Of a DNA stretch of 21,951 nucleotides, positions 22-8,993 are shown in pieces. Numbering within the stretch: the first letter of the stretch is position 1; every line of letters begins with the position of its first letter. Location of the stretch: the IMG/VR virus record IMGVR_UViG_3300006754_000219, positions 1 to 21,951 of that record, one strand, 5' to 3'. The notes under the pieces are model-generated. The model was not told where the DNA came from. It searched no databases and saw only the letters and a program-made list of their open reading frames with translations. Source of the stretch: a virus. Made by a program: the position numbers and the translations under genes.

Positions 22-1518
22 TTAATAATAATTTGCAATTCGGTTATGTTCCAAAGGCTCATCTTCTTCGTCAGAATGCAATGAAATAAAACCACCTTGT
101 CTGAATCTTAACAGAGCTTGCGTAGTGCTATCAACTAAATCGTCATGTTCCATATTTGGAAATCCCGCAAACTCCTCTATTGTTTCTTCTGCCCAACGTG
201 TTTCAGGTGCCCAAACCACTCCTGAAGCAAATAGATCAGATACAGCATTTACTCTTGATATTTTATCATTTCCTCTGCTAGGAGTGTACTCTTGTACTGG
301 AATTCCTATTGCCCTCAATTCAAAGATTAATGGCATACCTGCTGCTTTTGCTTCCACAATAAAGGCATCAGGTTTATAAGCGTTGTATTTTTCAAAAGCC
401 ATTTTCTTTAGCTCAGGAAACTCTAAACGCTCTTTGTAAGCATCTAACAGTATAAGGTTAGGTGCTAGCATTCCGTCATCATCTTCTCTATAAAAGACAC
501 CCCAAGTAGTGCAAGCAGAATAATCAGCTCTTTGATTCTTCATAAAAGCTGTATCCCAAGATTGGATAACAAACTCACATTGTGGTGGATTTCTTTCTTC
601 CCATATTTTCCACCATTCTCTTTTTACCAACGCCCCTTCTTCTGAAGTAGGGTCTTGCTGATACTGAGCCATCCATTTACTATTAGGCAGCTCGGCTTTC
701 AAAGCCTGTAATTCTTCCATTTTCCAGAATTCTGCCCACAAAGGATTACCTGAAGGCATAATGGCAGGAAGTTCTATTACTTCCCATTGGTCAGCTCCGC
801 CACGTTTTATGCTAGCATCTACCACCTGACCAGTTAAATCTTTATTGTGCCATCTTGTCATTACCACAACGATAGAACCATTTGGTTGTAAACGCTGTCT
901 CGGACCTGATGTATACCACTCGTATGTTCTATTGAATACGTTTATATCGGCACTTGCACCTTCTTGTTCTGAATGGGGGTCATCAATGATTAAGAGGTCA
1001 GCACCTTTACCAGTTACCGCACCGCCTACCCCTATCGCAAAATACTCCCCACCTTTGTTTGTATTCCACCTACCTGCTGCTTTGCTGTCAGATTGCAAGC
1101 TAACATCTGGAAAGACTTCTTTATAATCTTTACTATTAACAAGGTTTCTAACCTTCCTACCAAAGCCAACCGCTAGTTCAGCCGTGTGTGCAGTCTGAAT
1201 TATCTTCTTATCTGGGTATCTACCTAGAAACCATGCGGGTAATAGGTAAGAAGCAAACTCACTCTTTGTGTGTCTAGGGGGCATATTGATGATTAAACGC
1301 TTTAATTCGCCTTTAGCGACCCTCTCAAACGCATCAGCCATTATCTCGTGGTGTTTACCATGAATAAAAGCTGACCACATCTCCCCAACAAAGGTCATAA
1401 ACTCATCGTGGCACTTCTCCCTATTCTTCGCTTGCTCTAATTCTTCTAAAAGAACTAGTAACTCTTGCTTTTGTACAGGAGATAGATTTTTTACTTTACT
1501 AAGAACATTCTTATTCAT
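22..1518 (-). CDS. terL: Terminase large subunit (packaging ATPase/nuclease)
   Basis: Motor that cuts concatemeric phage DNA and drives it into the prohead through the portal. The 498-residue protein has full family length. The N-terminal ATPase shows a Walker A-like MPPRHTKSE at residues 79-87 and Walker B LLIIDD ending at D179/D180, followed by the coupling motif VMTRWH near 220. The C-terminal RNase H-like nuclease shows D322 (SWDTAF), E389 (IVEAKAAG) and HDDLVDS around 458-464. The stop codon is at 22-24. No strong ribosome site precedes the ATG at 1518. The gene lies 432 bases downstream of terS on the same strand, an unusually long gap, and its upstream region carries a repeat block shared with the primase gene. 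Family assignment is secure; packaging type (cos or headful) cannot be told from here. Confidence 0.96.
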   Translation of the reverse strand: MNKNVLSKVKNLSPVQKQELLVLLEELEQAKNREKCHDEFMTFVGEMWSAFIHGKHHEIMADAFERVAKGELKRLIINMPPRHTKSEFASYLLPAWFLGRYPDKKIIQTAHTAELAVGFGRKVRNLVNSKDYKEVFPDVSLQSDSKAAGRWNTNKGGEYFAIGVGGAVTGKGADLLIIDDPHSEQEGASADINVFNRTYEWYTSGPRQRLQPNGSIVVVMTRWHNKDLTGQVVDASIKRGGADQWEVIELPAIMPSGNPLWAEFWKMEELQALKAELPNSKWMAQYQQDPTSEEGALVKREWWKIWEERNPPQCEFVIQSWDTAFMKNQRADYSACTTWGVFYREDDDGMLAPNLILLDAYKERLEFPELKKMAFEKYNAYKPDAFIVEAKAAGMPLIFELRAIGIPVQEYTPSRGNDKISRVNAVSDLFASGVVWAPETRWAEETIEEFAGFPNMEHDDLVDSTTQALLRFRQGGFISLHSDEEDEPLEHNRIANYY

Positions 1519-2534: not shown

Positions 2535-2857
2535 ATGATGCTTAATGCTGTTAAACTGTCACCATACAGAGCAAACGGATGACCCTCTTTAAAAGCTTCG
2601 CCAGTCTCAAGAGAGATTGAAGGTTCTAGAAGTAGGACGCGATAAGGTTCAAATATAGTGAAGGTCGCATCTGAATCCGCCTAAGAAAGTGGCTAGTGTG
2701 AGGAGAGTGTAAAGGTTATGTGCAAGGTAACTGAAGAAGCAAGACCCACGAAACTCAAAGAGGATGATTATGTCGTTCAGCTATCGAGAGATACCTGATT
2801 CGAGCGTTAGATTAAAGAGACATATTTTGAAACTTTGAGGACAGTCCTCCAACTGTC
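2535..2857 (+). ncRNA. Structured leader RNA released by hammerhead cleavage
   Basis: About 320 bases with no open frame of note but many local folds. Examples are CAGTCTC/GAGATTG with an AAGA loop at 2602-2619, GTTCTA/TAGGAC with a GAAG loop at 2623-2638, TATC/GATA with a GNRA-type GAGA loop at 2782-2793, and GAGGA/TCCTC at about 2836-2848. GGATGACC near 2569 can pair with GGTCGCATC near 2663 across the first two hairpins. The 3' end is set by the ribozyme cleavage site after 2857. The 5' end is inferred from the TATAAT at 2523. I cannot match it to a known RNA family; it may be a leader or a stable phage RNA. Confidence 0.5.
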
Positions 2858-2900
2858 GCAAGGTGTGTACCTTGCCTGATGAAGCGAAAGCAGAAACAGT
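2852..2900 (+). ncRNA. Hammerhead ribozyme A (type III)
   Basis: All core parts are present in order. Stem III is ACTGT (2852-2856) with ACAGT (2896-2900). The cleavage base is C2857. Stem I is GCAAGGT/ACCTTGC closed by a GTGT loop (2858-2875). The core CTGATGA is at 2876-2882, stem II is GC-GAAA-GC flanked by an A/A pair (2883-2892), and the second core GAAA is at 2893-2896. Cleavage after 2857 would leave a 75-base 5' leader on the mRNA starting at 2933. Stems III and II are short, so it may be slower than the others. Confidence 0.86.
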
Positions 2901-2932
2901 AATTAATAACTAACTATGGAGGTTAGAAAACT

Positions 2933-3277
2933 ATGAGAAATATAGATAAAAATTGTGCGGTTGCTCTTTATGAATCTAAGGATTTTAAAGGCGGTAATAC
3001 TGTTGTTACAAGTGAAGGTGTTTGGTTGCATGGCAATCAGATTGTGAGAATCATACCTGAAGGAAACCTAAAGGATTCAACATTGGTTCAATTCACTTTA
3101 TGCGGTTGGGATACTCCAACAACTAGAGCGAGAATCAATGCGGTTCTAGATGTCTTTGAAGGTATGTTGTCCTTAAAGAAAATTAAAGGACAGACTTATC
3201 TTGTTGACTACATGGATAATATCCAAATGCCTATTGATTCCGATCAATGGTATTTCACTAAGGTGGAGGTTGCGTAA
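2933..3277 (+). CDS. Small phage protein, first gene of the early operon
   Basis: 114 residues, function unknown. The central pattern (LHGNQIVRI, then GW.T.TTR.RINAVL at about residues 59-73) resembles a small family common in marine phages, sometimes labelled DUF8033; that link is from memory and tentative. There is no signal peptide or membrane segment. The start is set by ATGGAGGTT at 2916-2924, whose GGAGG lies about 10 bases before the ATG. CTAAC (2910-2914) and GTTAG (2922-2926) can form a hairpin with the ribosome site in the loop. Hammerhead A lies directly upstream, and the next gene starts on the last base of this stop codon. Confidence 0.85.
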   Translation: MRNIDKNCAVALYESKDFKGGNTVVTSEGVWLHGNQIVRIIPEGNLKDSTLVQFTLCGWDTPTTRARINAVLDVFEGMLSLKKIKGQTYLVDYMDNIQMPIDSDQWYFTKVEVA

Positions 3278-3453
3278 TGAAGATCAAAGTTGTTTGGAAA
3301 AATGTCTTTGGGAATTACCTTCTTTATCCTGTCTGCGATACTGCTGAGAAATTAGCAAAGCTGACGAGATCAAAGACCTTTAACGATTATCACGTTGAGG
3401 TAATCGAGAGCCTAGGTTATGAACTGGAGGTTGTTCCTTTCATACCTAGATAA
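3277..3453 (+). CDS. Small hypothetical protein (58 aa), coupled to the previous gene
   Basis: The ATG overlaps the preceding TAA by one base (TAATG), and GGAGG lies about 8 bases upstream inside the previous gene, so translation is probably coupled. The product begins MKIKVVWKNVFGNY and ends EVVPFIPR; it is mostly hydrophilic with no membrane segment, and I do not recognise it. The stop codon at 3451-3453 touches stem I of hammerhead B, leaving no spacer between gene and ribozyme. Tight overlap and a good ribosome site support a real gene. Confidence 0.75.
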   Translation: MKIKVVWKNVFGNYLLYPVCDTAEKLAKLTRSKTFNDYHVEVIESLGYELEVVPFIPR

Positions 3454-3513
3454 GCCTACTGATGAGATTGTGAGATTCAATCGAAACTAGACTGCTTGCG
3501 GTCTAGTCTAGGT
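3454..3513 (+). ncRNA. Hammerhead ribozyme B (type I)
   Basis: A textbook hammerhead opened at stem I. Stem I is GCCTA (3454-3458) with TAGGT (3509-3513). The core CTGATGA is at 3459-3465. Stem II is GATTG/CAATC (3466-3482). The core GAAA is at 3483-3486. Stem III is a closed 7-bp hairpin, ACTAGAC/GTCTAGT (3486-3507), and the cleavage base is C3508. CTAG at 3446-3449 could extend stem I beyond an internal loop. Cleavage after 3508 leaves the whole ribozyme body as the 3' end of the upstream mRNA and a 50-base leader on the 3559 gene. Confidence 0.95.
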
Positions 3514-3530
3514 GCTAGCGTGGTGCTAGC
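3514..3530 (+). other. 5'-end hairpin GCTAGC-GTGGT-GCTAGC after hammerhead B
   Basis: GCTAGC at 3514-3519 and 3525-3530 pair around GTGGT. It begins five bases after the predicted cleavage site, so the processed mRNA would start with it. The same 17 bases follow hammerhead C. It is also a direct repeat of GGTGCTAGC. No T run follows, so it is not a terminator; protection of the new 5' end is a likely role. Confidence 0.75.
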
Positions 3531-3558
3531 ATATAACTAACTAATGGAGGTTAGAAAA

Positions 3559-3873
3559 ATGATTTTAGTTAAATTTGAAATTGAAATTGGTTGTGGTGAT
3601 TCATCTACAGAATATTCTTACTTTGGAGATTATGATAAGAAAGATTATGCAAACTTAAATGGTGAGTGTTTTGTTTCTGCACCTGAAGGCAAATACATAG
3701 ACATTGATCTTTTAGAAGAAGTCTATGGAGAGCCTTGCGAAGGTTTTGAAGAAGCAGAACAGTCTGTAGATGTTTATGACTATGGTGATGACAAGCTTAT
3801 AAGCGTTCTTGCAGTCTACGATTTAAACGTAGAACAACTTGAAACTCTTAGAGCATTCAATATTGTTTATTAA
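3559..3873 (+). CDS. Acidic small phage protein
   Basis: 104 residues beginning MILVKFEIEIG, function unknown. It is strongly acidic (for example LLEEVYGEPCEGFEEAEQS), which could suggest a DNA-mimic or inhibitor, but no motif proves this. An earlier in-frame ATG at 3544 is part of the ribosome site ATGGAGGTT (3544-3552), so I place the start at 3559, with GGAGG 8 bases upstream. The leader is the product of hammerhead B cleavage and again has CTAAC/GTTAG flanking the ribosome site. The stop codon is one base before hammerhead C. Confidence 0.83.
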   Translation: MILVKFEIEIGCGDSSTEYSYFGDYDKKDYANLNGECFVSAPEGKYIDIDLLEEVYGEPCEGFEEAEQSVDVYDYGDDKLISVLAVYDLNVEQLETLRAFNIVY

Positions 3874-3874
3874 A

Positions 3875-3937
3875 GCCTACTGATGATTAGCTGAAATGCT
3901 ATGAAACGAACTTGACTATGGTTGGGTTCGTATAGGT
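3875..3937 (+). ncRNA. Hammerhead ribozyme C (type I)
   Basis: Same architecture as hammerhead B. Stem I is GCCTA (3875-3879) with TAGGT (3933-3937). The core CTGATGA is at 3880-3886. Stem II is TAGC/GCTA with a TGAAAT loop and a U/U pair at the core end (3887-3902). The core GAAA is at 3903-3906, stem III is ACGAAC/GTTCGT (3906-3931), and the cleavage base is A3932 (a GUA triplet, allowed). Stem II and III sequences differ from B while pairing is kept, which is strong evidence for a functional RNA. Cleavage leaves a 55-base leader on the MoxR-type gene. Confidence 0.93.
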
Positions 3938-3954
3938 GCTAGCGTGGTGCTAGC
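3938..3954 (+). other. 5'-end hairpin GCTAGC-GTGGT-GCTAGC after hammerhead C
   Basis: Identical 17-base hairpin to 3514-3530, again starting five bases after the predicted cleavage site. The type I ribozyme plus this hairpin forms a module present twice in 430 bases. Confidence 0.75.
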
Positions 3955-3987
3955 AACATTAACTAGATAAATAGAATGGAGGTTCTT

Positions 3988-5037
3988 ATGTATCCTAGTA
4001 AAGCATTGCAGATTATGAAATCTGTATTAAATGGCGGTAACTCGCCTTTCCTCTTAGGAGGAACTGGTGTTGGTAAATCTGCGGTTGTAAGACAACTGGC
4101 AGATGAACTGGCTAATGGTAGAGAGATTGTATCTGATGAAATTAATCCAACTGCAAAACAGTTTGGGTGGATAGACTTCAGATTATCCCTCTATGAATCC
4201 GTAGACCTTGGCGGTCTGCCTTACATTGATGACAGCGATCAACAGAAGCGTGCCTTCTTAGGCAATCTTCCTATTGGTGGTGAGGGTGTTTTATTCTTTG
4301 ATGAATATGCACAAGCGCATCCAAGCGTTCAAGCAATTGTAGGACAGATTATTTATGAAAGAAGACTAGGCGAATACATCTTACCTGAAGGGTGGAAGAT
4401 TATTTGCGCGGGAAACCGATCTTCTGATAGGGCGGGCAGTAATGCTCTTCCTTCTCATGTCGTAGGTCGTTGCTCAATTATTAACTTTGAGCATAGTGCG
4501 GATGACTGGCTCTCGTGGGCGGTTGAGAATGATGTTCATCCTGACGTTTTAGGTTACATCAATTTTCAGCCTGAATGGTTGAATGAGTTTGACCCAAAAG
4601 TCAAAACTCCACAGCCTTCACCGAGAGCATGGACAAGACTGTCTGACACTTTGAAGACAAGTCCTCCTGATGAACTGAAGCAATTAATTTGTGAATGTGA
4701 TATCGGGGAGACTGCTTCAATTGAATTCATGTCTTTTCTTTCCCTTAAAAATGAAGTGCCTGATCTTGAACTTATTGTTCAAGGTAAGGATGTTGAAGTT
4801 CCTGATAGCGGAGGTATTTGTTATGCAACTATCTGCGCTCTTGTAACTGTCATCAAAGAAGCTAATGAACAGAACGTCACTAGCTACTTCAAGAACTCTC
4901 TTGACTTCATTAAGAAGTTTCCTTCTCCTGAGTTTGGAATCTTCTTTGTTCGTTCTGTAACTGGAGCAAGACCTGATCTAAAAGAAACTTCTACCTATGG
5001 AGAATTTAAGGTAGAAAATTCTGATCTAGAAGTCTAA
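3988..5037 (+). CDS. MoxR-type AAA+ ATPase
   Basis: 349-residue AAA+ ATPase of the MoxR group, which typically remodels or loads metal or partner proteins together with a VWA-domain protein. Walker A GGTGVGKS is at residues 24-31, Walker B LFFDE at 102-106, and sensor 1 is N143 in IICAGNR. The start is the ATG at 3988 with GGAGG five bases upstream; an in-frame ATG at 3976 belongs to the ribosome site ATGGAGGTT. The gene is preceded by hammerhead C and its hairpin. It forms a trio with the DUF3150-like gene (5212) and the HExxH/VWA gene (6188). Its substrate in the phage cycle is unknown. Confidence 0.9.
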   Translation: MYPSKALQIMKSVLNGGNSPFLLGGTGVGKSAVVRQLADELANGREIVSDEINPTAKQFGWIDFRLSLYESVDLGGLPYIDDSDQQKRAFLGNLPIGGEGVLFFDEYAQAHPSVQAIVGQIIYERRLGEYILPEGWKIICAGNRSSDRAGSNALPSHVVGRCSIINFEHSADDWLSWAVENDVHPDVLGYINFQPEWLNEFDPKVKTPQPSPRAWTRLSDTLKTSPPDELKQLICECDIGETASIEFMSFLSLKNEVPDLELIVQGKDVEVPDSGGICYATICALVTVIKEANEQNVTSYFKNSLDFIKKFPSPEFGIFFVRSVTGARPDLKETSTYGEFKVENSDLEV

Positions 5038-5064
5038 TCCTACGGGTTCGATTCCAAGCCTGTC

Positions 5065-5122
5065 GTGTATGGGGAAGAGAATATTTATTATTTACTGGTA
5101 AATCTTCTTTTCCCCTCTACAC
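5065..5122 (+). other. Long hairpin at the 3' end of the MoxR mRNA
   Basis: GTGTA (5065-5069) pairs with TACAC (5118-5122), and the 16 bases at 5071-5086 pair with 5100-5115 with one G/T pair and one mismatch. The stem is about 21 bp. It ends two bases before hammerhead D, so after self-cleavage it would sit close to the new 3' end of the upstream mRNA. It has no T tract, which argues against simple termination. It may block 3' exonucleases or be an RNase III site. Confidence 0.7.
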
Positions 5123-5123
5123 A

Positions 5124-5183
5124 TTATCTGATATTGAGATGTGTTATCTCAACTGACGATCTCGAAAGAGTGAAATCAGATAA
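5124..5183 (+). ncRNA. Hammerhead ribozyme D (type III)
   Basis: Stem III is a perfect 9-bp pair, TTATCTGAT (5124-5132) with ATCAGATAA (5175-5183). The cleavage base is A5133. Stem I is TTGAGAT/ATCTCAA with a GTGTT loop (5134-5152). The core CTGACGA (variable seventh base) is at 5153-5159. Stem II is CTC-GAAA-GAG flanked by a U/U pair (5160-5171), and the core GAAA is at 5172-5175. Cleavage leaves a 78-base leader on the 5212 gene. Every required position is present. Confidence 0.94.
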
Positions 5184-5211
5184 CTTTATCTAACTGAATG
5201 GAGGTTCAATT

Positions 5212-6195
5212 ATGGATAAAAATTTAAGTACAACTCTATCTGAGAATGCTACGTTGGTTCGTGTCGTTTTAGGACACCCTAGCGGAATAAAATCAGATAA
5301 GAGTTTAAAGAATGGATTAGCACAAGAAGTAAAATCTAATGCTGATCTGTTGAGTGTTTCTAAGCACATTTTTGGTCGCAACGTGAATAAAGAATTCCGT
5401 AGCATTATCAATGGGTTTAGGAACGATTTTTACTATCCTTTGACTTTGCCTTGGTCTGATACTTCAGACGAAAAGGGAGTTAAGGTTGGGAGTGGTTGGC
5501 GATTATGTCCTAACTCTAATCTCGATAATCTTATTGCAGAAATAAACAATGCACAAAGAATATGGGATAGAGAGGTTGAGGGATTTTTCGAGCAACTTCC
5601 TGAAGATATCGCAAATGCCAAGGCTAAGTTGGGTGATGCTTTTAACGAAGCAGATTATCCAACTGAAGATTGGGATTTAGATAGACTTAGAGATAAATTC
5701 ATCTTCCAGTATGAAACTGATGTCTTACCAACTTTTGGTTCTGATATCAGATTGAACGTATCTGATGAATTGAGAAAAAGGATAGAGAGTGATGCAGTAA
5801 ACAGAGCAAGCACCAACATTAAAAACATTTTAGTTACTACTGTTGATGCTCTTGTTTCGCAAGTAGATCACTTAGCTGAAAAGCTGAAAGCCTACGACCC
5901 TGAAAACAAGCAGAAGGGATTTTTCAACAATAGCAGTATCGAGAAATTGAGACAGGCTGTTGAAACTCTTCCCTCTATTAATTCAGATATCTTAGGCAAC
6001 GATCAAGCGATATCTGATGCTCATCAACAACTTGTAAGCGTTCTTGCTTCTATCAACTCCGTTGATTCTTTAAGGGATGAAACAGAGATAGGAGAGTCAA
6101 AACGTAAGCAAGTAGCTGAAGGTCTTGAACAGTCTGTTGGCGGACTCAAGGGCGGTTTCTTAGAACGTGCCTTTGGAGGTAAGAAAGATGACTAG
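5212..6195 (+). CDS. DUF3150-like protein
   Basis: 327 residues, largely helical and soluble. The pattern around residues 72-140 (FYYPLTLPWSD, SGWRLCPNSNLDNLIAEI, then W..EVEGFFEQLP) and the position between a MoxR ATPase and a VWA protein match the DUF3150 family seen in similar phage and plasmid clusters; I give that name from memory. Role unknown; it probably works as an adaptor or substrate of the ATPase/VWA pair. GGAGG of ATGGAGGTT (5198-5206) lies 7 bases before the ATG. Hammerhead D precedes it. The last 8 bases overlap the next gene. Confidence 0.75.
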   Translation: MDKNLSTTLSENATLVRVVLGHPSGIKSDKSLKNGLAQEVKSNADLLSVSKHIFGRNVNKEFRSIINGFRNDFYYPLTLPWSDTSDEKGVKVGSGWRLCPNSNLDNLIAEINNAQRIWDREVEGFFEQLPEDIANAKAKLGDAFNEADYPTEDWDLDRLRDKFIFQYETDVLPTFGSDIRLNVSDELRKRIESDAVNRASTNIKNILVTTVDALVSQVDHLAEKLKAYDPENKQKGFFNNSSIEKLRQAVETLPSINSDILGNDQAISDAHQQLVSVLASINSVDSLRDETEIGESKRKQVAEGLEQSVGGLKGGFLERAFGGKKDD

Positions 6196-7564
6196 TTTAG
6201 AGAAGATCATTAAAGCTAGATCAAAGCTAATGCAAGGTAACGTAGGTATGGCAAGTATGCTCCTACATCTTGACTTGGTAGAGGTCGATTCTTCTAAGTG
6301 TGACACTATGGCAACTGACGGAAGGAAGATATACTTCTTTCCTGATTTTGTCGAAGGTCTTACTGAAGAAGAAATTCAAGGCGTACTTGTCCACGAAGCT
6401 TTTCACGTTGTCTACGAACATCCGATAAGGAGAGGGAAGAGACATCCTAAAGTTTGGAACATTGCTTGCGATTATGTAATCAATGCTTACCTTGTATATG
6501 ATTTAGGAATGACTTTGCCAACTGGCGGTCTTTTTAAATACCTATATAAAGGTTGGACTGCTGAGAAGGTCTATCAAGACCTTATCAAAGATCAAGATGC
6601 CTTGGCTGAAGCAGTAGCACAAATTCAAGAAGACAATGAAGAACACAAGCCTGAAGATTCGCAAGATTGCGGTGAGGGTTCTTCAGATTCAGATGAAGCT
6701 AAAGGGGATGATGAAGAATCATTGACTGGTCAAGGAAATATTTCTGAAGACCCAGTAGATGAAAATTCTGACTCTTCAGAGACTGGAGAGATTGACTTGG
6801 ATTCTATTCCTACTGCAATAGGTGAAGTTTGGGATGCTACCAACGAAGAAGGCAAGCCTTTGAATGAAGCAGAACTTCAAGAATTGAAGGGCGAAATTCA
6901 AAGAGCAGTTTCCCTAGCTGATAAGCTAGAGCAATTTGGAAGCGGCACTTCTAATGTTAAAGGTGGTATAGATGAAGAGAAGGATGCAGTAGTTTCTTGG
7001 AAAGAAATGCTGAATGACTTCTTGCAGTCTATAACTTGCAACGATTATTCGTGGTCAAGGCTGAACAAACGTCATTCTTGGAGGGGTATCAATTTGCCTA
7101 GCAAGGTTCGCAATCCTGAAGGAGGAGAACTTGCGATAGCGGTTGATACTAGTGGAAGTGTTTCTCAACATGAACTTAATCAGTTCGCATCTGAGATTCA
7201 AGCTATGGCAGAAGACTGCGGTTTGGAGAAGGTGAGAGTTTGCTATTGTGCAGATACAGTAGTCAAAAATGAGCATGGTGAATGGTGGGATATCTACGAA
7301 CTTAATCAAGGTGAAGACCTTGAACTCAAGGTTCGTGGCGGTGGTGGAACTAGTTTCGACCCTCCCTTCCACTTATTCAATGAGTGGTCTGATGACGTAG
7401 AAGACGTTCAAGCCTTTGTTTACTTTACAGACGGATACGGAACTGTAGAGCCTGAACAAGAGCCTGAATGTCCTGTAGTGTGGTGCGTAACCCAAAAAAG
7501 CAGATATGCTGAAGAACTTCCTTTTGGAGATTTGGTTTACGTTGATACTGCTAATTTCTATTGA
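6188..7564 (+). CDS. Putative metallopeptidase with VWA domain (DUF2201-like)
   Basis: 458 residues when started at ATG 6188, which has GGAGG 8 bases upstream and overlaps the previous gene by 8 bases; a longer frame from 6167 would lie inside that gene. The N-terminal domain has a zincin motif HEAFH at residues 69-73. The middle, about 130-210, is a very acidic low-complexity linker. The C-terminal VWA domain has MIDAS-like DTSGS at about 320-324, GGGGTSFDPPF near 387, and FTDG near 413-416. This two-domain layout is that of the COG3864/DUF2201 group, which partners MoxR ATPases. No ribozyme precedes it, in line with translational coupling to the 5212 gene. Confidence 0.88.
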   Translation: MTSLEKIIKARSKLMQGNVGMASMLLHLDLVEVDSSKCDTMATDGRKIYFFPDFVEGLTEEEIQGVLVHEAFHVVYEHPIRRGKRHPKVWNIACDYVINAYLVYDLGMTLPTGGLFKYLYKGWTAEKVYQDLIKDQDALAEAVAQIQEDNEEHKPEDSQDCGEGSSDSDEAKGDDEESLTGQGNISEDPVDENSDSSETGEIDLDSIPTAIGEVWDATNEEGKPLNEAELQELKGEIQRAVSLADKLEQFGSGTSNVKGGIDEEKDAVVSWKEMLNDFLQSITCNDYSWSRLNKRHSWRGINLPSKVRNPEGGELAIAVDTSGSVSQHELNQFASEIQAMAEDCGLEKVRVCYCADTVVKNEHGEWWDIYELNQGEDLELKVRGGGGTSFDPPFHLFNEWSDDVEDVQAFVYFTDGYGTVEPEQEPECPVVWCVTQKSRYAEELPFGDLVYVDTANFY

Positions 7565-7579
7565 TAAGTCGATTCTAAG

Positions 7580-7617
7580 GGTGGGTTAATTTAGGAGATG
7601 TCCTAGGTTAACTCGCC
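7580..7617 (+). other. 17-bp hairpin after the VWA gene
   Basis: GGTGGGTTAATTTAGGA (7580-7596) pairs along its length with TCCTAGGTTAACTCGCC (7601-7617) with four G/T pairs, closed by GATG. It follows the stop codon and precedes hammerhead E by 45 bases, and no T tract follows. As with 5065-5122, it would sit near the 3' end of the RNA made by ribozyme cleavage. Confidence 0.75.
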
Positions 7618-7662
7618 TTCAGTTTCGCTCGCACGTTGGACTTATGGAGGTGGTTTTCCTTA

Positions 7663-7722
7663 AAACTGATCGCAAAATGTGTATTTTGCCTGATGATGAC
7701 TTAAAAGAGTCGAAATCAGTTT
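7663..7722 (+). ncRNA. Hammerhead ribozyme E (type III)
   Basis: Stem III is AAACTGAT (7663-7670) with ATCAGTTT (7715-7722), 8 bp. The cleavage base is C7671. Stem I is GCAAAAT/ATTTTGC with a GTGT loop (7672-7689). The core CTGATGA is at 7690-7696. Stem II is GACTT/GAGTC with an AAAA loop (7698-7711), and the core GAAA is at 7712-7715. One extra U (7697) sits between the core and stem II. Stem I has the same 7-bp size and GTGT loop as ribozyme A with a different sequence. Cleavage leaves an 80-base leader on the 7752 gene. Confidence 0.9.
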
Positions 7723-7751: not shown

Positions 7752-8069
7752 ATGAGTGATAAAAAAGCGGTTATTAAATTAACCAAAACAATGCTTAACA
7801 AATGTATTATTGATGCTAATGCTAGCGTTAGAGAATTTGTTAAGACTCAAGATGTATTCTTTGATGATATGTTGAGTGGTTCTTGGCATGTATTCCAAGC
7901 GGAATTTAAAGACGGAACTAGAACATTTATCAAATGTTACAGAACTAAAAATGCTAGAGCAGATAGAAGAATATCTATTAAACGTATCAAGGCTCAAGCA
8001 AATGTTGGTGATACTGTTACGTTCACTTTGAAAGGTGACAGAGTAATCTTGGAGGTGTCTAGTGAGTGA
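7752..8069 (+). CDS. Hypothetical phage protein (105 aa)
   Basis: Basic protein beginning MSDKKAVIKLTK, with a probable beta-rich C-terminal half (VGDTVTFTLKGDRVILEV). Function not recognised. The in-frame ATG at 7740 is the ribosome site ATGGAGG (7740-7746), so the start is 7752, with GGAGG five bases upstream. The leader comes from hammerhead E. The stop codon is inside the next gene, which uses a GTG start at 8062. This is the last block of the ribozyme-cut operon. Confidence 0.8.
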   Translation: MSDKKAVIKLTKTMLNKCIIDANASVREFVKTQDVFFDDMLSGSWHVFQAEFKDGTRTFIKCYRTKNARADRRISIKRIKAQANVGDTVTFTLKGDRVILEVSSE

Positions 8070-8184
8070 TATTAGAGATAAACCTTGTATGAGTCATTAC
8101 CCAGAGATTGACCACTATTGCGTTTTTAAAAAGCAAGGGTGCGAATACTATAAACCAGAGGTTGATAAGGAGGTATCTAAATGA
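8062..8184 (+). CDS. Small cysteine-containing protein (40 aa, GTG start)
   Basis: The GTG start at 8062 has GGAGGT five bases upstream and overlaps the preceding stop by 8 bases, and its own stop overlaps the next ATG (ATGA). The product begins MSDIRDKPCMSHYPEIDHYC, with three cysteines and two histidines (C9, H12, H18, C20, C27) that could bind a metal. No family recognised. The ribosome site and double overlap are the main support. Confidence 0.65.
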   Translation: MSDIRDKPCMSHYPEIDHYCVFKKQGCEYYKPEVDKEVSK

Positions 8185-8303
8185 ATAAATTCGTTATTAC
8201 GATACATCCTTGTGAAGTATGTGGGAATCCTGATGTTGAGTACGTTAATGGTGAAACTTGCGGTTGTGCGGTTTGTCACGAAGCTTACATGAATCAAGAA
8301 TAG
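8181..8303 (+). CDS. Small zinc-ribbon-like protein (40 aa)
   Basis: The start ATG overlaps the previous stop (ATGA), with AAGGAGG about 7 bases upstream. The product has C11-V-C... spacing C11xxC14 and C27xCxxC32 (CEVCGNP, then CGCAVCHEAY), suggesting a single zinc-binding knuckle. No family name can be given. It ends just before the operon terminator at 8320. Confidence 0.7.
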   Translation: MNKFVITIHPCEVCGNPDVEYVNGETCGCAVCHEAYMNQE

Positions 8304-8319
8304 GAGAAAATAAATTAAA

Positions 8320-8357
8320 GGCGGTAGCTACTTAGGTAGTTACTGCCTTTTTTTTTT
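8320..8357 (+). terminator. Rho-independent terminator of the ribozyme operon
   Basis: A 12-bp stem (8320-8331 with 8336-8347, two G/T pairs) with a TTAG loop is followed by ten Ts. It ends the operon begun at about 2.5 kb. Confidence 0.93.
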
Positions 8358-8368: not shown

Positions 8369-8596
8369 TATACCAACTGCTGTGTTTTTGCCGTAGCGTT
8401 CATTCATAAATAAATATTTACCAGTCATAAGTTTTTATTGGGTTACAGACGACCTATTGCTGTGTTTTGTGATCCCGTTGGTTTTTGGGTATTTTGTCAA
8501 TAGAAAAAAGCAAGACTAGATATAGTGTCTGACCGACAGAAATAACACAAGATGTTGGGCGGGTTGTAAAAAATATTTTATTAACCAGTAAATTCC

Positions 8597-8628
8597 TGTG
8601 GATAAATCTGTGAATAAATTGTGGATAA
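8597..8628 (-). promoter_or_regulatory. Three tandem DnaA boxes
   Basis: TGTGGATAA (8597-8605), TGTGAATAA (8609-8617) and TGTGGATAA (8620-8628) are, on the minus strand, TTATCCACA, TTATTCACA and TTATCCACA, all matching the bacterial DnaA box TTATNCACA. They are spaced 12 and 11 bases apart, about one helical turn, in one orientation. The last ends three bases before the -35 of the small RNA promoter, so host DnaA could start phage replication here, control the small RNA, or both. Confidence 0.85.
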
Positions 8629-8630
8629 GT

Positions 8631-8660
8631 ATTGCATTGTGCAATCAAATGAGTTATAGT
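8631..8660 (+). promoter_or_regulatory. Promoter and overlapping operator of the small RNA
   Basis: -35 TTGCAT (8632-8637), a 17-base spacer and -10 TATAGT (8655-8660); the first base of the small RNA hairpin, A8667, is exactly at the expected +1. ATTGCA-TTG-TGCAAT (8631-8645) is a perfect inverted repeat covering the -35, which looks like a repressor site. The promoter resembles that of the minus-strand gene at 12192 (TTGC, AATGA.TTAT in the same register). Confidence 0.75.
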
Positions 8661-8666
8661 TTTTTT

Positions 8667-8757
8667 ACTGATTTAGGAAAGCCTAAATTAGTAACCTCCA
8701 TGTCTAGTTAGTAGATGTAAAGGGGTAGGTTGTCCGATAACCTATCCCTTTTTTTTT
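8667..8757 (+). ncRNA. Small antisense RNA with an anti-Shine-Dalgarno segment
   Basis: About 91 nt with three parts. An 11-bp 5' hairpin is ACTGATTTAGG/CCTAAATTAGT with an AAAG loop (8667-8692). An apparently single-stranded linker of about 29 bases follows (8693-8721). A Rho-independent terminator ends it (8722-8757). The linker starts with AACCTCCAT (8693-8701), the exact complement of ATGGAGGTT, the ribosome site of the genes at 2933, 3559, 3988 and 5212; seven bases match at 7752. A second linker word, TAGTTAG (8705-8711), complements CTAACTA just upstream of the first two sites, extending the pairing across a 3-4 base bulge. No open frame is present. Likely role: block translation of the ribozyme-processed mRNAs; it also mimics the ACCUCC end of 16S rRNA. 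Confidence 0.82.
8722..8757 (+). terminator. Rho-independent terminator of the small RNA
   Basis: GGGGTAGGTT (8722-8731) pairs with AACCTATCCC (8739-8748) with one G/T pair and a 7-base loop, followed by nine Ts. Confidence 0.93.
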
Positions 8758-8768
8758 GGTCTAAATTT
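8749..8768 (+). repeat. Terminator-tail direct repeat, copy 2
   Basis: Exact copy of 8349-8368 (T9 then GGTCTAAATTT). Confidence 0.85.
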
Positions 8769-8879
8769 GTGAAAGTCATTGCAAATACAACAGGCACTAA
8801 TAATGGGTAGTGTAGGAAAGAGATGAGAAATGGCGTAATAATACAGCAGTAGGCGTGATTAACCGAATAAATATCTATA

Positions 8880-8885
8880 ACCAGT
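8880..8885. repeat. ACCAGT AT-rich dispersed repeat (one of eight noted)
   Basis: ACCAGT in an AATATT/TATTA ... AAATATT context occurs at 2480, 8420, 8584, 8880, 9835, 14061 and 16624, and inverted at 5094-5099. The copies at 8880 and 9835 share ACCAGTAAATATTCT. Three cluster in the control region. Others lie inside genes, and plain ACCAGT also occurs elsewhere (829, 1009), so chance is not excluded. A protein-binding site (origin iteron or regulator) is possible. Confidence 0.4.
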
Positions 8886-8993
8886 AAATATTCTCTGCGC
8901 GGTTACAAAATACTACTGGTGTAGGAAATACATCAATAGGTAACACTACAAGTAATGCAAGTAGTAACACTACCAATCAATGTGTTCAGTCGC

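What the first reader, a model, noticed from the sequence alone, without database searches (positions are those of the whole stretch)
2852..7722. Five hammerhead ribozymes cut one phage operon into separate mRNAs
Seen: five complete hammerhead motifs (2852-2900, 3454-3513, 3875-3937, 5124-5183, 7663-7722), each with all three stems, CTGANGA and GAAA cores and a permitted cleavage base. One stands before every gene that has an ATGGAGG ribosome site (2933, 3559, 3988, 5212, 7752); genes without a ribozyme (3277, 6188, 8062, 8181) are start/stop coupled to the one before. Stem sequences differ while pairing is kept. Known: single hammerheads occur in phage and bacterial genomes, usually with unknown role. 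Inference: the ribozymes punctuate the operon and define mRNA ends, replacing nucleases or separate promoters.
Basis: partly seen in the sequence, partly recalled or inferred. Interest (0 to 1): 0.96.

Follow-up and report, generated by a model that had tools for sequence, protein, structure and literature searches.

The report
Ribozyme-punctuated phage operon
A marine virus of bacteria carries a self-cutting RNA motif (a hammerhead ribozyme) in front of every independently translated gene of one operon, and so do its relatives; this suggests that the virus cuts its own long RNA into separate messages without needing an enzyme, which was proposed for phages in 2011 but has not been seen there laid out so regularly.

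Summary
A descriptor scan finds exactly five hammerheads in the window, all on the operon strand, at the stated places, and none in 200 shuffles. Covariance models built without window sequences find all five (E 4.5e-15 to 7e-7). Rfam hits none at its gathering threshold, so standard annotation misses them.

In relatives (IMG/VR, ATPase 65-100% identical) the pattern holds. Genes overlapping or abutting the gene before: 98, none with a hammerhead. Genes after a gap over 60 nt: 152 of 168 have one, and most of the 16 exceptions are gene-call errors or variant hammerheads. All 51 distinct ATPase genes have one directly upstream, whose type has switched between I and III. Hammerheads lie only in this operon.

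Best explanation: natural ribozyme insulators turning one transcript into several mRNAs. Cleavage itself is untested.

The general idea is not new: Perreault et al. 2011 described clustered phage hammerheads and tested some. New here are the one-per-cistron rule, the end-capping layout and the variants.

The parts
2560..2839 (+). Leader RNA upstream of the first ribozyme; noncoding, with a conserved block at about 2619-2766
   Evidence: 76-90% identity in relatives and several covarying pairs in an RNAalifold consensus; no Rfam match. The first cut would release it.
2840..2857 (+). Hairpin GACAGT-CCTCCA-ACTGTC; loop complementary to the Shine-Dalgarno TGGAGG, 3' arm shared with stem III of the first hammerhead
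   Evidence: sequence; CCTCC at this place in 24 of 44 distinct leader-type elements of relatives, with changing arms
2852..2900 (+). Hammerhead 1, type III, predicted cut 2857/2858
   Evidence: E 2.6e-9; MFE fold is the hammerhead
2910..2926 (+). Shine-Dalgarno hairpin CTAAC-TATGGAG-GTTAG
2933..3277 (+). Gene 1, unknown function (PHROG 554, Pfam Kyano_Gp96)
3277..3453 (+). Gene 2, overlaps gene 1 by one base, no ribozyme
3454..3513 (+). Hammerhead 2, type I, starts at the base after the stop codon of gene 2; predicted cut 3508/3509
   Evidence: E 2.6e-15; MFE fold is the hammerhead
3514..3530 (+). Hairpin GCTAGC-GTGGT-GCTAGC five bases after the cut: 5' cap of the next mRNA
3541..3554 (+). 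Shine-Dalgarno hairpin CTAATGGAGGTTAG
3559..3873 (+). Gene 3, unknown
3875..3937 (+). Hammerhead 3, type I, U.U at 10.1/11.1; predicted cut 3932/3933
   Evidence: E 7e-7; MFE fold is the hammerhead, z -3.9
3938..3954 (+). Hairpin GCTAGC-GTGGT-GCTAGC after the cut
3973..3986 (+). Shine-Dalgarno hairpin AGAA-TGGAGG-TTCT
3988..5037 (+). AAA+ MoxR-like ATPase (PHROG 1297)
5071..5115 (+). Strong hairpin just upstream of hammerhead 4: 3' cap of the ATPase mRNA
   Evidence: 60 nt upstream fold at -27.4 kcal/mol, z -7.4 (L001 copy)
5124..5183 (+). Hammerhead 4, type III, U.U at 10.1/11.1; predicted cut 5133/5134
   Evidence: E 4.5e-15; MFE fold is the hammerhead
5195..5208 (+). Shine-Dalgarno hairpin TGAA-TGGAGG-TTCA
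5212..6195 (+). Gene 5, 327 aa, unknown
6188..7564 (+). Metallopeptidase-like / VWA protein (Pfam DUF2201_N and DUF2201); overlaps gene 5, no ribozyme
7580..7617 (+). Possible hairpin upstream of hammerhead 5
   Evidence: seen in the sequence (coordinates); not folded on its own
7663..7722 (+). Hammerhead 5, type III, unpaired U between A9 and stem II; predicted cut 7671/7672
   Evidence: E 3e-9; MFE prefers another fold
7752..8069 (+). Gene 7, unknown
8062..8184 (+). Gene 8, 40 aa, GTG start, overlaps gene 7
8181..8303 (+). Gene 9, 40 aa, cysteine pairs, overlaps gene 8
8317..8357 (+). Intrinsic terminator of the operon (15-bp stem, then a run of T)
8664..8757 (+). Candidate small RNA with a single-stranded ACCTCCA matching the operon's Shine-Dalgarno sites; may belong to the system

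Best explanation
The operon (leader at about 2.5 kb to the terminator at 8.36 kb) is probably transcribed as one RNA. Each hammerhead folds and cuts it once, giving six pieces: a leader RNA and five mRNAs, each holding one gene or one group of overlapping genes. Every new mRNA would start with a 5'-hydroxyl followed by a hairpin: stem I of the ribozyme itself for type III, a separate hairpin placed after the ribozyme for most type I. Upstream pieces would end in a 2',3'-cyclic phosphate preceded by a structure: the whole ribozyme for type I, a separate hairpin in many type III cases. The ribozymes would therefore act as natural insulators and punctuation, giving each cistron defined, protected ends, its own stability and a constant 5' leader with the Shine-Dalgarno site in a small hairpin. 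Shown here: the motifs, covariation, conservation, the one-per-uncoupled-gene pattern and the asymmetric hairpins. Inferred: cleavage, one transcript, stability differences, benefit to the phage.
For: Exactly five motifs, none in 200 shuffles. Models from relatives find all five. Type III alignment: 127 cells changed on both sides against 34.7 in shuffles, covariation 0.881 against at most 0.119 for slid versions; type I 0.540 against at most 0.089. Pattern: 152 of 168 genes after gaps over 60 nt have a hammerhead, 0 of 98 coupled genes; no broad-recogniser hits in 30 shuffles or on 361 kb of antisense strand. All 51 distinct ATPase genes have one upstream and the type has switched I/III on the tree. 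Hammerheads are confined to this operon in six contigs of 49-58 kb. Type I followed by hairpins (median z -2.72, 72% below -2) while type III are not (-0.40, 22%); upstream the order reverses (type III -1.70, 43%; type I -0.94, 19%). Shine-Dalgarno hairpins: mean stem 4.49 against 2.92 +/- 0.12 permuted. Predicted Shine-Dalgarno accessibility barely changes on cleavage (medians 2.47 to 2.46 and 2.09 to 2.05 kcal/mol), as expected of an insulator. No promoter excess inside; strong terminator at the end. Precedent for the chemistry in phage context: PMC3088659; RiboJ, a hammerhead plus 23-nt hairpin, raises transcript level about twofold (PMC6206723).
Against: No cleavage or transcript data. No Rfam gathering-level hit. 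Hammerheads 1 and 5 have a weak or off-consensus stem II and hammerhead 5 has a more stable competing fold. In one clade (L064-L079) the ATPase/gene 5 junction has no recognised ribozyme and the genes still follow one another, so the device is not indispensable there. Alignment rows were picked by a descriptor that already demands pairing, so pairing percentages lean towards the model; the slid controls and held-out searches are the less biased evidence. The contigs are related, so p values overstate independence. Fewer than half of type III sites have a clearly unusual upstream hairpin.
Confidence: 0.72

Rival explanations
1. The ribozymes are gene-control switches: folding competition or a ligand decides whether a given one cuts, and cutting turns the following gene on or off.
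For: The leader hairpin 2840-2857 shares its 3' arm with stem III of hammerhead 1 and its loop matches the Shine-Dalgarno site; similar elements occur before the first genes of many relatives. Some type I ribozymes carry long structured inserts in stem III.
Against: Nested folding predicts almost no change in Shine-Dalgarno accessibility on cleavage. Most of the ribozymes are compact and without room for a sensor. No known aptamer found by Rfam.
Confidence: 0.12
2. The hammerheads persist as joints for gene exchange: a ribozyme-plus-leader module moves with gene cassettes, and the repeats help recombination; RNA cutting is secondary.
For: Gene content before the ATPase changes from contig to contig while the modules recur. 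A hammerhead 2-like ribozyme sits before the ATPase in L010 and L072, joined to the ATPase leader at the shared GCTAGC hairpin.
Against: Core letters and pairing are kept while stems diverge, and type I is replaced by type III at the same place, which repeats used for recombination would not need.
Confidence: 0.1
3. They are non-functional or nearly neutral relics.
For: One decayed copy (L073, GAAA changed) and one clade with a junction lacking a ribozyme.
Against: Conservation and covariation.
Confidence: 0.04

Closest known systems
Clustered hammerhead ribozymes of prophages (Perreault et al. 2011, PMC3088659)
   Same: Several hammerheads flanking phage genes; [quoted passage not shown] coli (Agrobacterium triple).
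   Different: Here up to six in one operon, one per uncoupled cistron as a clade-wide pattern, orthologous sites kept with the ribozyme type exchanged, and added end hairpins and Shine-Dalgarno hairpins. The genes here are not those named there.
RiboJ synthetic insulator (hammerhead plus 23-nt hairpin before a ribosome site; PMC6206723, PMC7536230)
   Same: Layout hammerhead, then hairpin, then ribosome site, then gene; the cut leaves a hairpin at the new 5' end.
   Different: RiboJ is man-made from a plant satellite RNA and used behind a promoter. Here the units are natural, lie between cistrons, and exist as type I and type III.
Rfam Hammerhead_3 (RF00008) and RAGATH-1-hammerhead (RF03152)
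   Same: Relatives match Hammerhead_3 at E 1.8e-7 and 3.5e-5; hammerhead 2 matches RAGATH-1 weakly.
   Different: All matches lie below the curated gathering scores.
RNase III processing of T7 early mRNA (from general knowledge)
   Same: A polycistronic phage RNA is cut between genes, leaving structured ends.
   Different: A host protein enzyme does it in T7; here the RNA would cut itself.

Membership tests
Hammerhead ribozyme | Core CUGANGA and GAAA in the right order, UH at the cut, A15.1-U16.1 pair | tested here: met
   All five in the window
Hammerhead ribozyme | Three helices meeting at the core, supported by covariation | tested here: met
   held-out model hits
Hammerhead ribozyme | Paired 10.1-11.1 closing stem II | tested here: inconclusive
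   Paired in hammerhead 2 only; U.U in 3 and 4 (reported as tolerated in PMC3088659), A.A in 1, extra U in 5
Hammerhead ribozyme | Match to a curated Rfam hammerhead model at its gathering score | tested here: not met
   No hit in window and five relatives; best sub-threshold hit in a relative 47.5 bits against 48.5. This tests the model's breadth, not the biochemical definition.
Hammerhead ribozyme | Self-cleavage at the predicted site | not testable with these tools
   Needs in vitro transcription
Ribozyme-punctuated phage operon | Ribozymes between cistrons of one transcription unit, in sense orientation | tested here: met
   All on operon strand; none antisense in relatives; strong terminator only at the end. 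That it is one transcript is inferred.
Ribozyme-punctuated phage operon | Separate mRNAs with matching ends in infected cells | not testable with these tools
   No transcript data for these phages

The most novel reading that the evidence does not exclude
The locus is a complete RNA-based expression system: a conserved leader RNA, hammerheads that cut out each cistron with capped ends, Shine-Dalgarno sites in small hairpins using the sequence TGGAGG that is nearly confined to this operon, and a separate small RNA downstream with an exposed ACCUCCA that would pair with just those sites and control all the cut mRNAs together. In addition, some relatives use hammerhead topologies not described in the papers read here: stem II replaced by three consecutive hairpins, and a two-base AA insert before GAAA.
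Probability: 0.3. Interest if true: 0.9.

Novelty: new variant of a known kind. Interest (0 to 1): 0.74.

Why it matters
The natural job of bacterial and phage hammerheads has been open since 2011. A clade in which nearly every uncoupled gene of one operon has its own ribozyme, the same sites keep a ribozyme while its type changes, and coupled genes never have one gives a clear, testable function. It would be a natural counterpart of a standard synthetic-biology part, and because Rfam misses all of it at its default threshold, more such operons are probably overlooked: phage contigs without these operon genes but with two to four hammerheads before genes turned up here at once.

Tried and rejected
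Rfam as the arbiter: too narrow, all hits sub-threshold. Cleavage as unmasking of the Shine-Dalgarno site: not supported by folding of precursor against product. Hammerheads in the nearest isolated phages by terminase (HTVC027P, HTVC023P, 023Pt_psg01, DSL-LC04, first 50 kb of each): none. The model searches also covered three distant phages that share only the ATPase (Cyanophage S-TIM54, phage G7C, phage phiFa) and found nothing significant there. A cellular genome carrying the ATPase: none, so the host stays unknown. tRNA genes: none. Alignment A2 contained two rows that I had lengthened by hand; it was discarded and nothing rests on it. The first count of the gene pattern had 31 apparent exceptions; reading them showed variant hammerheads and gene-call errors, and a broadened recogniser, written after seeing them, reduced them to 16. 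The strict count alone is 135 of 166 against 0 of 96 (Fisher p = 1e-44). The not-HHR-linked control still contained genes with variant hammerheads, so its small excess is not interpreted.
Full report
OBSERVATION. I wrote a descriptor for the three circular hammerhead permutations (core CUGANGA and GAAA, UH at the cut, at least 4 bp in stems I and III, a short stem II with one core-proximal irregularity allowed). Three are type III (2852, 5124, 7663) and two type I (3454, 3875). Four of the five have the hammerhead as minimum-energy fold; the fifth prefers another fold by 2.8 kcal/mol. Rfam has no gathering-level hit and one weak RAGATH-1-hammerhead hit in the window.

RELATIVES. The window is an IMG/VR virus fragment. 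The ATPase at 3988 led to 80 related contigs, 65-100% identical in protein. They hold 128 distinct strict hammerheads, 69 of type III and 59 of type I, all on the operon strand and none antisense. Covariance models built from relatives only recover all five window motifs: type III at E = 4.5e-15, 2.6e-9 and 3e-9, type I at 2.6e-15 and 7e-7. Pair counts show covariation far above shuffled and slid controls. Rows were selected by a descriptor that requires pairing, so the held-out searches and slid controls carry more weight than the pairing percentages. Rfam's Hammerhead_3 finds relatives at E = 1.8e-7 and 3.5e-5, under its gathering score.

THE PATTERN. With a gene caller based on ribosome sites, 98 distinct genes that overlap or abut the gene before have no hammerhead, while 152 of 168 genes after gaps above 60 nt have one; the broadened recogniser used gives no hit in 30 shuffles and none on 361 kb of antisense strand (Fisher p = 2e-56, on related sequences). 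Of the 16 exceptions most are internal starts or missed upstream genes; four hold variant or long-insert ribozymes and one is decayed (L073). Every one of 51 distinct ATPase genes has a hammerhead directly upstream; on the ATPase tree that site needs only three changes of state, with type III in L064, L065, L069 and L074 and type I elsewhere. The junction after the ATPase has no recognisable ribozyme in the L064-L079 clade. In six contigs of 49-58 kb hammerheads occur only in this operon, and model searches of 13 records agree.

ENDS. The two types cut at opposite ends of the ribozyme, and the flanks differ accordingly. After type I ribozymes the next 30 nt are strongly folded (median -7.6 kcal/mol, z -2.72, 72% below -2), typically GCTAGC-loop-GCTAGC; after type III they are not (-2.4, z -0.40, 22%). 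Upstream the order reverses (type III -13.8, z -1.70, 43%; type I -9.7, z -0.94, 19%), though much of the sequence upstream of type I is coding. So a separate hairpin tends to be supplied where the ribozyme itself does not provide one. Type I ribozymes start almost flush with the preceding stop codon.

RIBOSOME SITES. GGAGG sits in a small covarying hairpin: over 90 distinct starts the mean stem score is 4.49 against 2.92 +/- 0.12 when 3' flanks are permuted. In six near-full contigs TGGAGG precedes 30 of 48 operon genes but about 13 of 535 others. Folding predicts no general change of its accessibility on cleavage, which favours insulation over a translational switch.

VARIANTS. (a) Six distinct sequences, at several operon sites, carry three consecutive hairpins between A9 and G12, the first with a GNRA loop and changing arms (CCTA-GCAA-TAGG, CCAC-GAAA-GTGG, ACGT-GAAA-ACGT); Kienbeck et al. 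2023 state that insertions above one or two nucleotides next to CUGAnGA are unknown (PMC10085705). (b) Before the first genes of many relatives, 44 distinct elements have a two-base AA before GAAA, stem I with loop AATTAA, and a short stem III, about 2-4 bp by eye. (c) One-base inserts CTGAATGA, a type reported as weakly active. (d) Type I with 100-350 nt in the stem III loop. Whether any of these cut is unknown.

WIDER. Pattern scans of IMG/VR found 102 further stretches without the operon genes, 39 of them with at least one strict hammerhead; some are flanks of the same phage group, others are not. L187 has four, L253 three and L258 two, placed before genes. L285 has three, before a short gene block and two long genes, in a layout that resembles this operon.

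MECHANISM AND STATUS. The best-supported reading is ribozyme-made punctuation and insulation of a single transcript, as set out above. Steps shown: motif, conservation, pattern, flanking structures. Steps inferred: co-transcription, cleavage, stability, benefit. The general idea is in Perreault et al. 2011, who also showed cleavage of three clusters; the literature library held no report of this phage group's ribozymes, but most subscription journals are not in it.

Noticed in passing
window 8664-8757 (+): Candidate small RNA: 5' hairpin, single-stranded AACCTCCA, hairpin ATGTCTA-GTTAG-TAGATGT, terminator. AACCTCCATGTCTAGTTAGTAGATGT is nearly invariant in close relatives while the 5' hairpin is replaced by unrelated ones; more distant relatives keep ACCTCCA plus terminator. 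It matches the operon's TGGAGGT ribosome sites.
   Followed up: partly
window 2560-2839 (+): Conserved noncoding leader RNA with covarying pairs and no Rfam match, which hammerhead 1 would release.
   Followed up: partly
L024, L034, L041, L053, L108, L204: Hammerhead-like RNAs in which stem II is replaced by three consecutive hairpins.
   Followed up: partly
L046 ATPase +1051..1297; L055; L005 and L009 about -160: Type I hammerheads with 100-350 nt inserted in the stem III loop; content of the inserts unknown.
   Followed up: no
window 5071-5115 and intergenic stretches at 8380-8900; stem III of L016-L024: Repeated palindrome around TTTACTGGTAAATAATATTTACCAGTAAA, also found inside some ribozyme stems; purpose unknown.
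   Followed up: no
window 7644: An ATGGAGG in the spacer before hammerhead 5 without a gene behind it.
   Followed up: no
L187, L253, L258, L207: Phage contigs without the window's operon genes that have two to four hammerheads placed before genes.
   Followed up: partly
L034, L044, L053, L056, L058: A recurring structured insert in stem III of type I ribozymes (TTTAAACCAGTAAGCAGAAATGCTCTGACCCTTTCGAGGGA); could be a sensor or a peripheral domain.
   Followed up: no
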